Shown here in pieces: positions 40,562 through 45,492 of a DNA stretch of 64,000 nt. Numbering within the stretch: the stretch's first letter is position 1; each line of letters starts with the position of its first letter. A program made the translations under genes and the position numbers. The stretch lies in contig JABLYA010000001.1 of the NCBI GenBank assembly GCA_013177855.1, positions 2,064,983-2,128,982 of the forward strand, in the 5' to 3' direction. The notes under the pieces are model-generated. The model ran no database searches. It worked only from the letters and a program-made list of their open reading frames with translations, and was not told the DNA's origin. The stretch is from Ignavibacteria bacterium. Lineage in GTDB: Bacteria > Bacteroidota > Ignavibacteria > Ch128b.

Positions 40562-42103
40562 TTATTTACATAAAATTACTTCTTTTATCTCTGAGCCTAT
40601 TTTAGTTAATGCTTCACCAACGTTTAGGTTGTTTACAATTTTTAAATAATATCTTGCTTGCTCTAATGAAAGTCCAAATTTTTGTTGAAGGAATTTTATT
40701 GATGAAGGGTTACAATTTAATATAAATACAAATTCTAATAATTCTAAGAAATTAAAGTCAGTATAATCAAAATCGTCAGGAGATTGCGAAAGCAATATAA
40801 CAGATGCACCCTTCGACCTTATTTCTCTTATTATATTTTCAAGGGTTCTAACTCTATTTTTGTTCTTTAAAAAGTGATGAGCCTCGTCAATAACTATAAT
40901 AATCTTTAATTCTCTAGAGCTAGTATATTTGTCTTCGTAGGCATCGTCTAAATTTAATAGTTCTTTATATAATTCTTCTAAGACCAAATAAACTACTAAT
41001 TCTTTTAAAGCCGGTAATTTATGGATATCAATAATTAAAGTTTTGTCGATTAATGAGTCCCAGTGATTTGCTTCTCTTGAAGCAAATAAATTGTGTTCAA
41101 CCAAAGGTCTTAGAATTGAAGTTAATGTATCTACTTTACTAGATATTTTTTCTAATTCTTCTTTGACTGTTAAAAAGTCAGGAAATGGATTTTCTTGATG
41201 CATTAATTTTTCGTAGGATTGTACAATAGCATTATATAGATTTTGCTCTTGTACTGTACCGATTGTTGCTTCTACTTCTTTAAAAAGATTAACTATCCTT
41301 TCAGCTGTAAATTTTATTTCTTTATAATTATTGTTTTTTAATTTAAATACATTAATAGGTAATGGTTGATCGATAATATCAAAAACAAGAGAATTTGTTT
41401 GTTTGACAAAATTTTCATCATTCGAAATATCACCTTTAGCATAATCAAAAATTATAAAGTTAGTTTTGAAATTAGTACTTTTTCTAATTTCTGTGAGTAA
41501 ATATTTAACAAAAAATGTCTTACCGCTACCAGGTTTGCCTATTATGCCAACATAATTATTGGGGTGTTCTATAAAATTATTAAAATTAATATAAATGGGT
41601 TGATTAATCTTCTTGTCTACTCCAACCCTAAGTTTAATTAAATCTTTAAAACCGTGATAAGTTGGACTCTCTGAACTTTTAATTTTTGATTGAGCTTTTT
41701 TAGAATAACTCCTAATTAAGTATGCTAAATAATCAAATCCATCTAAATTTTCTGATAAATCCTGATGAATGATATATAAACCATGCTCAATATGTTTAAC
41801 TAATAGATAAATATACTCATCATCATCTAATAATTTATTATAATACTGATTTAATAATGACTTTATTAATAATCCATTTTTTTGGACAAAAGTATCTATA
41901 TCAATTTCTTTTCTCTTACCGGTTTTATTAGCTTCTTTGATTTCATCGGAATTATCCACTAAAAATTTTTGACCCGTTTGAAGAGATCTAGCAAAAGCTA
42001 TTCTTAAAGTCCATAAATCATCTTCATTTTCTAACTTTAATTTTATTTTTACTTTATACATTAAATCTGTTGCTTGTGGATTTAATTTTAATCTTTTGCT
42101 CAT
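40562..42103 (-). CDS. DndE-like domain fused to HerA/FtsK-type ATPase
   Basis: The 513-residue protein has two parts. Residues 1-~125 resemble DndE, the small DNA-binding component of phosphorothioation: a start like RLKLNPQATDLMYKVK, a core DLWTLRIAFARSLQTG matching the DndE W-x-x-L-C-R-x-A-x-x-x-S-L pattern, and an ending LLVKHIEHGLYII matching its H-x-x-R-G stretch. Residues ~165-510 are a HerA/VirB4-like ATPase with Walker A GKPGSGKT at 189-196, Walker B IIVIDEAHH at 402-410 and a sensor LLSQSP at 437-442. HerA-like ATPases also occur as DptH/DndH in Dnd restriction modules. It is the last gene of dndC-dndD-this, 3 bp after dndD. It is very AT-rich, suggesting transfer. Confidence 0.8.
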   Translation of the reverse strand: MSKRLKLNPQATDLMYKVKIKLKLENEDDLWTLRIAFARSLQTGQKFLVDNSDEIKEANKTGKRKEIDIDTFVQKNGLLIKSLLNQYYNKLLDDDEYIYLLVKHIEHGLYIIHQDLSENLDGFDYLAYLIRSYSKKAQSKIKSSESPTYHGFKDLIKLRVGVDKKINQPIYINFNNFIEHPNNYVGIIGKPGSGKTFFVKYLLTEIRKSTNFKTNFIIFDYAKGDISNDENFVKQTNSLVFDIIDQPLPINVFKLKNNNYKEIKFTAERIVNLFKEVEATIGTVQEQNLYNAIVQSYEKLMHQENPFPDFLTVKEELEKISSKVDTLTSILRPLVEHNLFASREANHWDSLIDKTLIIDIHKLPALKELVVYLVLEELYKELLNLDDAYEDKYTSSRELKIIIVIDEAHHFLKNKNRVRTLENIIREIRSKGASVILLSQSPDDFDYTDFNFLELLEFVFILNCNPSSIKFLQQKFGLSLEQARYYLKIVNNLNVGEALTKIGSEIKEVILCK

Positions 42104-42106
42104 ATA

Positions 42107-44137
42107 CTATTCAAAATATCCTTCCTTAATTTGAGATCTAGTGCTTATTCTTTCTATATAAAACTTTTTTGAAATACATTCTTTTATTACTTCCAATTCT
42201 TTATTTACTATTTCAGTATTTGTAGATAGTAGAATTACTTGATGGCTAGCATTGGGAAAATAGAATCTTGAAATATTTTCTCGGTGGTATGTGTCAAGTC
42301 TGCCTAAAGGAGTATCTATAACAATAGGAAGTTCTCTGTCTGCAATTCTAGTTAATGAATAAATTAAAGATATCGCTAAAATTTCTTTTTCTCCTGCTGA
42401 TAATTTTGTTTTATCTATAAGATTATTGTTTTTATCATAAAGTTCAATTGTAAAATCTGTATTTGGATTAATAATGATTTTTTTTATTTGATCTTTTTTA
42501 ATAGCAAGTTTATTCCACATTTCAAGAGTATAATTTTGTAATTGACTTATTTTGGTTATTCTAAGTTCAATTATATAATCTTCAATTGTATGTTTTAGTC
42601 TTTTACAGTACTCAATCTGATCTTTCATTTTAGATGTATTTTCAACTTTATTTTCATATTCAGATAATTTTCTTCTTTTAGTTTCAACTTCTTTTTTAAG
42701 TTTTAGATTTTCAGTGCTTAAGCTATTTTTTTGCTCAATTAAGATATCTTTCTCTTTTTTTAGAGCCCCTTTTTCTTCTAATAGTTTTTTTATCTCATCG
42801 TCATTTGTATTTATTCTATTAGATTTAATTTTTTTTAGCTGATTTTCTAAAAAGTAAAAGTCATTTATGTTTTTCTGGAAATTTTCTACAAAATCATCAT
42901 TGTATATTTCATTGATTTGTTGTTCAATAACCATTGATTCAGATTTTGACAAATCATGTAAAATTAAAATATTTTCTTGTTGCGTTTCTAATAATTCATT
43001 TTTTAATATATTTATTAAAATATTCTTATACTTAATCTTTAAATCTTCCTGTATTTGATTAAATCTTTCAATTTCCTTGATAAATTTATCAGCAATAATT
43101 TCAATTTTATTCTTATTCTTTTCATTAATAATAATATTGTCTTTAAATTTATCCTCTTTTTTCAACTGTTCAAGAATTTCTAAACATAAATCGATATTTA
43201 ATACAAATGGTAACTTTTCCTTAAGGTCACGAAAAATTTTTTCTTCTAGACTAGCTTTCTTTTGTAAATATTCTTCTTTTGTTTTTTCATATTCTTCAAT
43301 CGAAGAATAATTAATGTTAGATATTCTTTTTGTTTCACTATCAATCCTTTCAATGTCTAAATCTATTTGATTTATTTGTTGATCTATTTCATCAATTTTT
43401 TCTTGATTAAGAGTTATAATTCTTTCAAGTTTTTCTATTTCACTCTCTATTTCTAAAATCTTTTCTTTTAATTCTGAATTTTCCTCATATTCTTTTGCTA
43501 TTTTTCTTCTTGTTATATCTAAGTCTTCCTGAAGTTTACGAAAAAGTGATATTCCTAAAACTTTTTCTAATGATTCTGCAAATTCCCTATCTTCATCTTT
43601 AACAAAATCTTGAATTTTTTCTCCATCAAAAAAGAAAAACTGTGATATATCGTAAGGTATTAATTCCTCGATAAAATCATCCCAATTTTCCTTTGTATAA
43701 AATTCAAACGGTTCTTTTACATTATTTATTAATAAAGATATTTCTAAATTTTCATCAAATTGGGAGTTGTTGTTGAATATCCAAGTTCTATTTACAGCAA
43801 TAGATTGTTTAACCCCACTTATTTCAATGTCTTTTAGTTCTATTTCAATAGACATTCGGGGGCGAAGACTATTTTTCTTTGCTTCCCTATTTAATACAGA
43901 TGAAATATAATTTTGATAATCCTCTCTTTTCGCCCCTTTAGATGGCCATAAGTTTTTATTTTTCTGACCATAAAGACATAATAATATTGCTTCAAAAATA
44001 GTTGTTTTACCAGCTCCGTTTAATCCGCCAATCAAAATGATATTTTTCTTATCACTCAAATCTTTTGCTAAATCGTTAATTACAATTGTGCCTTCAAAAC
44101 ATTTAAAGTTTGTAATTGAAATTTTATTAATAAACAT
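42107..44137 (-). CDS. dndD: DNA sulfur modification ATPase DndD (SMC/Rad50-like)
   Basis: DndD is the ATPase of the phosphorothioation machinery, thought to alter DNA structure or supply energy during sulfur insertion. The 676-residue protein has Walker A GLNGAGKT at 38-45, a Q-loop-like FFFDGEKIQDF near 170, and two long coiled-coil arms full of Lys, Glu and Ile. The ABC signature LSAGEKEILAIS begins at 579 and Walker B LPIVID is at 603-608, followed by TPLGRLD. The opening ITNFKCFEG and the FFFDGE motif favour DndD over RecF or SbcC. No zinc-hook CxxC is seen between the arms. Two bases separate it from dndC. Base composition is more AT-rich than the flanking housekeeping genes. Confidence 0.88.
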   Translation of the reverse strand: MFINKISITNFKCFEGTIVINDLAKDLSDKKNIILIGGLNGAGKTTIFEAILLCLYGQKNKNLWPSKGAKREDYQNYISSVLNREAKKNSLRPRMSIEIELKDIEISGVKQSIAVNRTWIFNNNSQFDENLEISLLINNVKEPFEFYTKENWDDFIEELIPYDISQFFFFDGEKIQDFVKDEDREFAESLEKVLGISLFRKLQEDLDITRRKIAKEYEENSELKEKILEIESEIEKLERIITLNQEKIDEIDQQINQIDLDIERIDSETKRISNINYSSIEEYEKTKEEYLQKKASLEEKIFRDLKEKLPFVLNIDLCLEILEQLKKEDKFKDNIIINEKNKNKIEIIADKFIKEIERFNQIQEDLKIKYKNILINILKNELLETQQENILILHDLSKSESMVIEQQINEIYNDDFVENFQKNINDFYFLENQLKKIKSNRINTNDDEIKKLLEEKGALKKEKDILIEQKNSLSTENLKLKKEVETKRRKLSEYENKVENTSKMKDQIEYCKRLKHTIEDYIIELRITKISQLQNYTLEMWNKLAIKKDQIKKIIINPNTDFTIELYDKNNNLIDKTKLSAGEKEILAISLIYSLTRIADRELPIVIDTPLGRLDTYHRENISRFYFPNASHQVILLSTNTEIVNKELEVIKECISKKFYIERISTRSQIKEGYFE

Positions 44138-44139
44138 TT

Positions 44140-45492
44140 CTAAGTATTAGAATTATTGATGAACTTGCTTATTTTACTTTGCATATCTTTATGAATTGAT
44201 GATCTTCTTAAAAATGTCAAATGTTTTTTTTCTAACTCCATTAATTCCTTTATGTGTTCAATCTTAACACTATGTTTTTCACATATTCTTTCTAAAATTT
44301 TTTCCTCCTCATGAAGTTTTTCTTCTTTAAATTTATTTTCCCCCATTAATTTTTCTCCTTTAATTTTATAATAAATATTAGCAACTGAATATTTATAATT
44401 CCCATCAAATCTCCATTGAGCTTCGATTGCCGAAATCTCAGTACGTGAAATTAAATTTAACCCTGTTTCTAACTCTATTTTTAATAATTTCTCAAGGATT
44501 TCTTTTCTTGTTTCAAAATTAAATGGCCCAAGGCCATCTTGACCATTTCTTCTCGTTTTATCTCGTCTGTTAGGTTCATTTCTTATAGTTTTTAACCATG
44601 TTCTGAATTCATACAATGGAAGCATCCAATCTTCACCGTTTTTAATCAAATTGTACATGGATTTATCTTCTTCAATAACTGTACAAACCCAGCATCCAAA
44701 TCTTGAATTACCACAACTAGGTGTTGTATCATCTATAACTAATGGACAATCCATTATGTCAGATGCATTTCGATATAAATTTAATAACTTTTCATTATCA
44801 ACCCCCCATGGGTTTTTATTATTTATTAAATAAGCCCAAACTTCTTGAGTAGATAAATCAGCGATTGGACTAAAAACAAATGCATTACCAAGTGAATGCT
44901 TTCTAAGGCGCATTCCAAATATTTCATATTTTTTCATAGTTTTATTTCTATTCGCTGATTCAGATTTCCGAGTTCCCAGAACTATGATTACTTTACCATT
45001 TTTATTAATTTCTTGCTTTATATATTCATTGGTAGGATTAATTTTCATTTTTTCTGTACACCATCTAAACCATCGAGTTGGTGATGGATAACCCTTCCCT
45101 ATAAGATTTAACCAAAAAGTATCAATTAATTTTGGTGTGACTTTAGCTACGTTAAATAATTGTGGATTATGTGCATATAATGAGTTTTTACCTGCAATTT
45201 CAATAAATTTTAATTGTTCATCAATAAAATTAGAGATATTAGGATTCTCTACCAAAGTATCATTTGCTAAAACATGAATTTCTTTATTCCTTTTGGTAAT
45301 TTCTAATTCTTTTATTGCATTAAATATTAATTGCAAAACAACAGTACTATCCTTGCCCCCTGAAAAACCAATTATCCAAGGAAAGTTATCTTCTAAATAC
45401 TGTTCTTTTATTTCTCGAATTATTTTTGTAATCTTTTTATTCAAAACTTCAAAAAACTCTGTGGTTTCATTTATTAATTTTTTATCTAGCAT
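44140..45492 (-). CDS. dndC: DNA phosphorothioation sulfurtransferase DndC
   Basis: DndC is the PAPS-reductase-like, Fe-S-dependent protein that activates DNA and passes sulfur to the backbone. The 450-residue protein has the PP-loop GFSGGKDSTVVL at residues 42-53, WFRWCTEKMKI (Cys145), LGTRKSES and a cysteine cluster CGNSRFGCWVC (260, 267, 270). These four cysteines fit the [4Fe-4S] site of the family. IADLSTQEVWAYL and FRTWLKTIRNEPNRRD are also DndC-like. The charged C-terminal helices (~390-450) extend it. It is the first gene of the cassette; a 28-bp perfect palindrome ends upstream at 45526. Sulfur must come from a cysteine desulfurase encoded elsewhere. Confidence 0.9.
   Translation of the reverse strand: MLDKKLINETTEFFEVLNKKITKIIREIKEQYLEDNFPWIIGFSGGKDSTVVLQLIFNAIKELEITKRNKEIHVLANDTLVENPNISNFIDEQLKFIEIAGKNSLYAHNPQLFNVAKVTPKLIDTFWLNLIGKGYPSPTRWFRWCTEKMKINPTNEYIKQEINKNGKVIIVLGTRKSESANRNKTMKKYEIFGMRLRKHSLGNAFVFSPIADLSTQEVWAYLINNKNPWGVDNEKLLNLYRNASDIMDCPLVIDDTTPSCGNSRFGCWVCTVIEEDKSMYNLIKNGEDWMLPLYEFRTWLKTIRNEPNRRDKTRRNGQDGLGPFNFETRKEILEKLLKIELETGLNLISRTEISAIEAQWRFDGNYKYSVANIYYKIKGEKLMGENKFKEEKLHEEEKILERICEKHSVKIEHIKELMELEKKHLTFLRRSSIHKDMQSKISKFINNSNT

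What the first reader, a model, noticed from the sequence alone, without database searches (positions are those of the whole stretch)
40562..42103. DndE-like domain fused to a HerA/FtsK-type ATPase in a phosphorothioation cassette
Canonical DndE is a small (~100-130 aa) stand-alone DNA-binding protein, and the HerA-like ATPase DptH/DndH belongs to the separate restriction module. Here a DndE-like N-terminus (DLWTLRIAFARSLQTG, ending LLVKHIEHGLYII) is joined to a complete P-loop ATPase (Walker A 189-196, Walker B 402-410) and sits as the third gene behind dndC and dndD. One protein would couple sensing of modified or nicked DNA to translocation, so modification and effector functions may be merged. 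I vaguely recall helicase-fused DndE variants being mentioned, so the domain order may not be wholly new, but its biochemistry appears little described.
Basis: partly seen in the sequence, partly recalled or inferred. Interest (0 to 1): 0.8.

Follow-up and report, generated by a model that had tools for sequence, protein, structure and literature searches.

The report
Phosphorothioation cassette with motorised DndE
Three bacterial genes that probably put sulfur into DNA end in a protein joining a DNA-binding clamp part (DndE) to a DNA-pumping motor (HerA/DndH type); the joining itself has been published in passing, but the survey made here suggests the motor core can swap the kind of DNA mark it works with.

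Summary
ORF 40562..42103 is on the minus strand (513 aa) and is the last gene of a tight operon dndC-dndD-dndE::herA. Residues 4-117 match Pfam DndE above cut-off, and the modelled N-terminus matches DndE structures (4LRV, 5WTU) first. Residues 157-511 are a complete HerA/FtsK ATPase closest to the C-terminal domain of DndH (7ES4), not to conjugation ATPases. The fusion is already described: NAR 2024 (PMC10853773) reports HerA/FtsK domains fused to DndE beside a DndD-related ATPase. This is therefore a new member of a known kind. It belongs to one fusion lineage (35 of 35 sampled, support 99/97) found in many phyla. The ~5 kb, low-GC cassette is absent from two congeners. The genome has no DndB or DndH, so the cassette stands alone, as in four other genomes. 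Best reading, inferred: DndE::HerA is the translocating subunit of a modification-guided complex. No activity has been tested.

The parts
44140..45492 (-). dndC, 450 aa, PP-loop/4Fe-4S sulfurtransferase
   Evidence: TIGR03183 427 bits; PADLOC DndC 7.7e-146; SGGKD loop and cysteines 145, 260, 267, 270 (RWC; SCGNSRFGCWVC) present
45058..45093 (-). DndC specificity loop GYPSPTRWFRWC (residues 134-145)
   Evidence: nearest published pattern Thr-Arg-Ser of GAAC/GTTC modifiers (PMC12193691), third residue Trp instead of Ser
44152..44310 (-). DndC C-terminal tail (residues 395-447), homologous to small protein Sp-DndD/PbeB
   Evidence: PADLOC PbeB E=7.7e-8; tail HMM finds the Sp ORFs of relatives, 20 shuffled controls do not
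42107..44137 (-). dndD, 676 aa, Rad50-like coiled-coil ABC ATPase
   Evidence: TIGR03185 366 bits over cut-off, only copy over cut-off in the genome; no CxC motif
40562..42103 (-). dndE::herA fusion gene, 513 aa
41753..42103 (-). DndE domain (residues 1-117): two strand-helix-helix units
   Evidence: PF08870 4-117; model E4-6 H9-21 H29-43 / E66-68 H69-87 H94-116; top 14 PDB folds are DndE
41636..41752 (-). C-terminal DndE helix (122-143) and weakly modelled linker (138-147) up to residue 156
40571..41635 (-). HerA/FtsK ATPase domain of DndH type (residues 157-511)
   Evidence: PADLOC DndH 7.7e-36; 7ES4 by sequence and fold; tree
41516..41539 (-). Walker A GKPGSGKT (189-196)
   Evidence: sequence; G189, G192, G194, K195, T196 invariant in 40 relatives
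40874..40900 (-). Walker B region (402-410, D406 E407)
   Evidence: D406 E407 invariant
40784..40828 (-). conserved R426/R429 (arginine-finger position) and sensor Q440
   Evidence: invariant; assignment follows the HerA/FtsK description in PMC10853773
40528..45525 (.). accessory islet (whole cassette), absent from two congeners
   Evidence: aminopeptidase and gdhA 196 bp (G001) and 444 bp (G002) apart, 5.08 kb here; GC 22-29% against 32-39% in flanks

Best explanation
The locus is a self-contained three-gene DNA phosphorothioation cassette, DndC-DndD-DndE::HerA, acquired as an islet. Identity is shown by sequence and fold; everything about action is inferred. DndC transfers the sulfur, supplied by a housekeeping cysteine desulfurase, and is held on DndD by its C-terminal tail. 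DndD is the Rad50-like clamp. The DndE domain docks on DndD's coiled coil and contacts double-stranded DNA. The HerA domain tethered to DndE is a ring-type, ATP-driven double-strand DNA motor of the DndH kind, so recognition and pulling of DNA sit in one complex. As in DndFGH, whose ATPase and translocation are repressed by phosphorothioate (PMC11662687), the motor would run on unmodified DNA and pause at modified sites. It would thus serve as the effector, with nucleases present in some relatives and none here.
For: DndE domain. ATPase closest to DndH, catalytic residues intact. Single fusion lineage, support 99/97. Tight operon with intact DndC motifs. Genome has no DGQHR/DndB, no DndH other than this gene, no DUF262-type SspE/DndI; eleven PF00266 proteins can include an IscS. 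The islet is absent from congeners. The bare three-gene cassette recurs among housekeeping genes in L110, L119, L121 and, beside small HTH-like neighbours, L114. In relatives the same DndD-DndE::HerA core is joined to a methylase that bears a nuclease domain with conserved ExK, i.e. the motor sits where HsdR's motor would be.
Against: No nuclease is encoded in the cassette, so a restriction role for this copy would need a trans nuclease or a block without cutting. No phosphorothioate, ATPase, translocation or phage data exist for any member that could be found. In the tree the fused HerA domains are not nested among the DndH rows sampled here. Unlinked nucleases elsewhere in the genome were not surveyed beyond the families named.
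Confidence: 0.5

Rival explanations
1. The motor serves modification only. HerA moves the DndCD-DndE complex along newly replicated DNA so that it scans and modifies sites processively; there is no restriction and the mark is purely epigenetic.
For: No nuclease in the cassette, and no DndB, DndH or DUF262 match in the genome; bare three-gene cassettes recur; PMC10853773 finds modification modules commonly decoupled from DndFGH.
Against: Canonical DndCDE modifies DNA without any HerA motor, so a motor is not needed for the chemistry; in the methylase-linked relatives the neighbourhood includes a nuclease-like domain; a self-contained accessory islet more often carries a defence benefit (general knowledge).
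Confidence: 0.33
2. The ATPase is a conjugation or pilus-type ATPase and the N-terminus is an unrelated helical domain.
For: VirB4 profiles hit the ATPase (TIGR00929 5.5e-12; PF12846); VirB4 4AG5 is the second structural match.
Against: DndH profile 7.7e-36 and 7ES4 rank first; the NCBIfam VirB4/TraC scores are far below their cut-offs; N-terminus is DndE by profile and fold; no conjugation genes adjacent; beside dndD in relatives.
Confidence: 0.03
3. The fused ATPase is a regulatory or docking subunit that hydrolyses ATP but does not translocate DNA, for instance switching DndD open and closed.
For: HerA-family proteins form large assemblies with partner enzymes in other defence systems (SIR2-HerA and DUF4297-HerA complexes among the matches).
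Against: Complete catalytic set is conserved across phyla, as in translocating HerA/FtsK; the DndFGH complex that holds the nearest homologue, DndH, translocates (PMC11662687).
Confidence: 0.14

Closest known systems
DndE fused to clade-3 HerA/FtsK beside a DndD-related ABC ATPase (PMC10853773, section on HerA-FtsK capture)
   Same: Same two domains in one polypeptide, next to DndD
   Different: Described there in one sentence; this copy is a bare dndC-dndD-dndE::herA islet without DndB or nuclease. Whether it falls in their clade 3 was not tested with their data set
Canonical DndABCDE phosphorothioation system (E. coli B7A, Salmonella Cerro 87)
   Same: DndC, DndD and DndE domain, with catalytic motifs
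   Different: DndE is a stand-alone ~110 aa protein there; no motor; DndB usually present
DndFGH restriction system (DndH/DptH C-terminal ATPase, PDB 7ES4)
   Same: HerA/FtsK ATPase domain is the closest solved homologue
   Different: No multidomain DndH partner; the motor here is fused to DndE, not to a nuclease-bearing DndH
Pbe / CxC ABC-ATPase systems (PbeABCD)
   Same: ABC ATPase plus DndE-like protein; the DndC tail here resembles PbeB
   Different: DndD lacks the CxC motif; no HKD-nuclease/SF2 helicase (PbeA) in the cassette
Type I restriction-modification (HsdMS + HsdR)
   Same: In dndC-less relatives, HsdS and an N6-methylase with HSDR_N domain stand beside the core
   Different: The translocase would be HerA/FtsK with DndD instead of the SF2 motor of HsdR; not the arrangement in the window

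Membership tests
DndE (PF08870) | profile match over the curated cut-off | tested here: met
   28.0 vs 25 bits, residues 4-117; 40 of 40 relatives match at E<=1e-3. TIGR03184 equivalog cut-off not reached
DndE (PF08870) | two tandem ribbon-helix-helix units, DndE fold | tested here: met
   model of residues 1-135, pLDDT 86; best 14 PDB matches all DndE 4LRV/5WTU, probability 1.00, E from 3e-3
DndE (PF08870) | small stand-alone protein | tested here: not met
   single 513 aa ORF with ATPase; same in the complete relatives. Hence a DndE domain in a fusion, not a canonical DndE protein
DndE (PF08870) | encoded next to DndD | tested here: met
   3 nt downstream of dndD; dndD found in nearly all relatives with enough upstream sequence
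HerA/FtsK ATPase, DndH type | Walker A, Walker B DE, arginine finger, sensor Gln | tested here: met
   K195, T196, D406, E407, R426, R429, Q440 conserved
HerA/FtsK ATPase, DndH type | nearest to DndH C-domain rather than VirB4/conjugation ATPases | tested here: met
   In the tree, fusions form one clade beside several DndH groups, not inside them; one DndH group stands with a TraC-like ATPase
HerA/FtsK ATPase, DndH type | oligomeric ring that translocates double-stranded DNA | not testable with these tools
   only monomers could be modelled
Dnd phosphorothioation system | DndC, DndD and DndE present together | tested here: met
Dnd phosphorothioation system | cysteine desulfurase (DndA or IscS) | tested here: inconclusive
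   none in the cassette; eleven PF00266 matches elsewhere in the genome, not resolved to IscS
Dnd phosphorothioation system | phosphorothioate in genomic DNA | not testable with these tools
   needs LC-MS of genomic DNA
DndFGH restriction module | full-length DndH (with DndF, DndG) | tested here: not met
   DndH profile hits only the fused ATPase in the whole genome; DndF and DndG not searched separately
Pbe / CxC system | CxC (zinc hook) motif in the ABC ATPase | tested here: not met
   no CxC in the window DndD, nor in any of 61 DndD ORFs over 600 aa of relatives

The most novel reading that the evidence does not exclude
DndD-DndE::HerA is a chemistry-neutral DNA-scanning and pumping core of a class of modification-guided defence systems. 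It is paired with either DndC (phosphorothioation) or a nuclease-N6-methylase plus HsdS, in which HerA replaces the HsdR motor. The 'disordered small regulator' Sp-DndD/PbeB is really the detached DndD-docking tail of DndC, kept because the clamp needs it.
Probability: 0.45. Interest if true: 0.75.

Novelty: new member of a known kind. Interest (0 to 1): 0.48.

Why it matters
Canonical phosphorothioation keeps the modifying complex and the pumping restriction complex apart. A three-gene cassette with the motor built into DndE is a compact system in which one could ask directly whether modification and interception of DNA are done by one machine. The exclusive pairing of the core with DndC or with a methylase gives a concrete answer to test for an open question raised in the literature: what DndD-DndE cores without DndC modify. 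It also offers a specific role for the Sp/PbeB small proteins.

Tried and rejected
Conjugation/pilus ATPase identity: rejected. Recombinase-borne island with flanking repeats: no convincing repeats at the edges and no recombinase next to the cassette. phmmer of the N-terminus alone against PDB finds nothing significant; only profile and fold show DndE. TIGR03184 is below its cut-off. Pbe/CxC membership: no CxC motif. Plasmid and phage collections hold no full-length fusion. PF26340 was not in the library. The 2020 ABC-ATPase paper that I take to be ref. 24 of PMC10853773, to which the fusion is credited, is not held, so the full extent of prior description could not be read. The DndC loop (T-R-W) does not fit a published class exactly, so no target motif is claimed.

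Full report
What is there. The ORF is real and lies on the minus strand, 42103 to 40562, 513 aa. It is the third gene of an operon with 2-3 nt between genes: dndC (45492-44140), dndD (44137-42107), dndE::herA. DndC and DndD exceed the curated NCBIfam cut-offs. DndC keeps the SGGKD ATP loop and the cysteines published as Fe-S ligands; its specificity loop is GYPSPTRWFRWC.

The N-terminus is a DndE domain. Pfam DndE matches residues 4-117 above its gathering score, and all 40 aligned relatives match it too. The AlphaFold2 model (pLDDT 89, pTM 0.70) shows strand-helix-helix twice, the two ribbon-helix-helix units that PMC10853773 gives as the mark of DndE. A separate model of residues 1-135 finds DndE crystal structures 4LRV and 5WTU as its first 14 PDB matches (probability 1.00; E 3e-3 to 4e-2; TM by target 0.62-0.76), followed by a component of the F-plasmid relaxosome; that paper named relaxosome protein TraY as a structural match of DndE.

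The C-terminus is a HerA/FtsK ATPase of the DndH kind. DndH is the best PADLOC family (7.7e-36), 7ES4 the best PDB sequence (1.2e-10) and the best fold (1e-21, TM 0.86 of the target), with VirB4 second. Catalytic residues are conserved in 40 relatives. In a careful tree the ATPase domains of 35 DndE fusions form one clade (99/97), apart from several DndH groups. The data therefore point to a single fusion lineage.

Setting. In two species of the same genus the flanking aminopeptidase and glutamate dehydrogenase genes are neighbours (196 and 444 bp apart); here they are 5.08 kb apart. GC falls to 22-29% in the cassette against 32-39% around it. The cassette is therefore an accessory islet, gained here or lost in the others. 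The genome (rated 100% complete) has no DGQHR/DndB match, no DndH apart from this gene, no DUF262 (SspE/DndI-type) match, and one DndD over the cut-off. Other nucleases elsewhere in the genome were not excluded.

Relatives. A scan of GTDB genomes found 210 relatives, of which 80 were read. With profiles made from the cassette genes, three settings appear. (A) dndC-dndD-dndE::herA, often followed by a small GIY-YIG-like nuclease and dndB; bare three-gene cassettes occur in L110, L114, L119 and L121 as in the window. (B) No dndC: a methylase of ~910 aa (HSDR_N_2 plus N6_Mtase, Pfam; ExK and NPPF motifs conserved), an HsdS-like protein, often a ~210 aa protein of unknown family, a ~62 aa protein, dndD and dndE::herA, across many phyla. 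(C) A protein with a sigma-70 region 4 match, dndD and dndE::herA; two further loci have that protein together with dndC.

An unexpected link. The ~62 aa protein is Pfam Sp-DndD (PF20306). An HMM of 21 DndC tails finds, among 4,298 ORFs, the complete DndCs and one small ORF upstream of dndD in 39 loci without dndC (E 4.5e-11 to 3e-3); the next hit has E=1.3. Twenty column-shuffled versions and the reversed one give no hit under 0.01. PADLOC's own DndC model hits the Sp of L095 at 403-458 of 481 (4e-9), and PADLOC PbeB hits the window DndC tail (7.7e-8). Of 49 loci with at least 6 kb upstream, 13 have dndC and none of these has Sp or the methylase; 36 lack dndC, of which 32 have Sp and 26 have methylase plus HsdS. 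These counts are of related loci, not independent events: setting B is one clade in the tree. PMC12193691 places DndC's DndD-binding surface in its residues 433-482 and its C-terminal helix. Sp is thus plausibly that docking piece on its own; PMC10853773 had viewed it as a disordered negative regulator. The statement that the link is new rests only on the papers that could be searched.

How it most likely works. Shown: domains, motifs, operon, islet, single fusion lineage. Inferred: DndC, DndD and DndE::HerA form one complex; DndE positions it on DNA; HerA pumps DNA; the mark controls the pump. The inference leans on DndFGH, where PT represses ATP hydrolysis and translocation (PMC11662687), and on setting B, where the same core stands with a nuclease-bearing methylase. 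The main rival is that the motor only helps modification.

What is known. [quoted passage not shown] The window locus is therefore a new member of a known kind. The pairing with N6-methylase/HsdS and the DndC-tail origin of Sp were not found in the text searched, but the 2020 source paper could not be read.

Noticed in passing
44152-44310 (minus); L095:7822-8010 and 38 other small ORFs upstream of dndD: The DndC C-terminal tail is homologous to the stand-alone small protein Sp-DndD/PbeB, found only where dndC is absent.
   Followed up: yes
L067, L068, L073, L079, L086, L095 and about 20 more loci: DndD-DndE::HerA without DndC, next to an HSDR_N-N6-methylase fusion, an HsdS and often an unknown ~210 aa protein.
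   Followed up: partly
L043:3687-5687, L044:4749-6953, L104, L105, L106; also L109, L113: A 510-870 aa protein with a sigma-70 region 4 match and weak RNA polymerase alpha-CTD similarity stands before the core, with or without dndC.
   Followed up: partly
L107, L112, L115, L123 downstream of dndE::herA: A recurrent gene pair: a protein similar to PADLOC PD-Lambda-5_A (4.8e-26) and a ~320 aa protein without any family.
   Followed up: partly
L042:11533-12027 (minus); L111, L118, L122, L126: Small GIY-YIG-like protein just before dndB in DndE::HerA cassettes; only a weak Pfam match (E=0.018).
   Followed up: partly
L050:292-2235: One ORF holds the end of DndD, DndE and HerA in one frame, near a contig end: possible triple fusion or sequencing error.
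   Followed up: no
L046:8766-10496 and L047: Stand-alone ~580 aa HerA-like ATPases of Kapaibacteria, nearest outgroup of the fusions in the tree, with an N-terminus of unknown kind.
   Followed up: no
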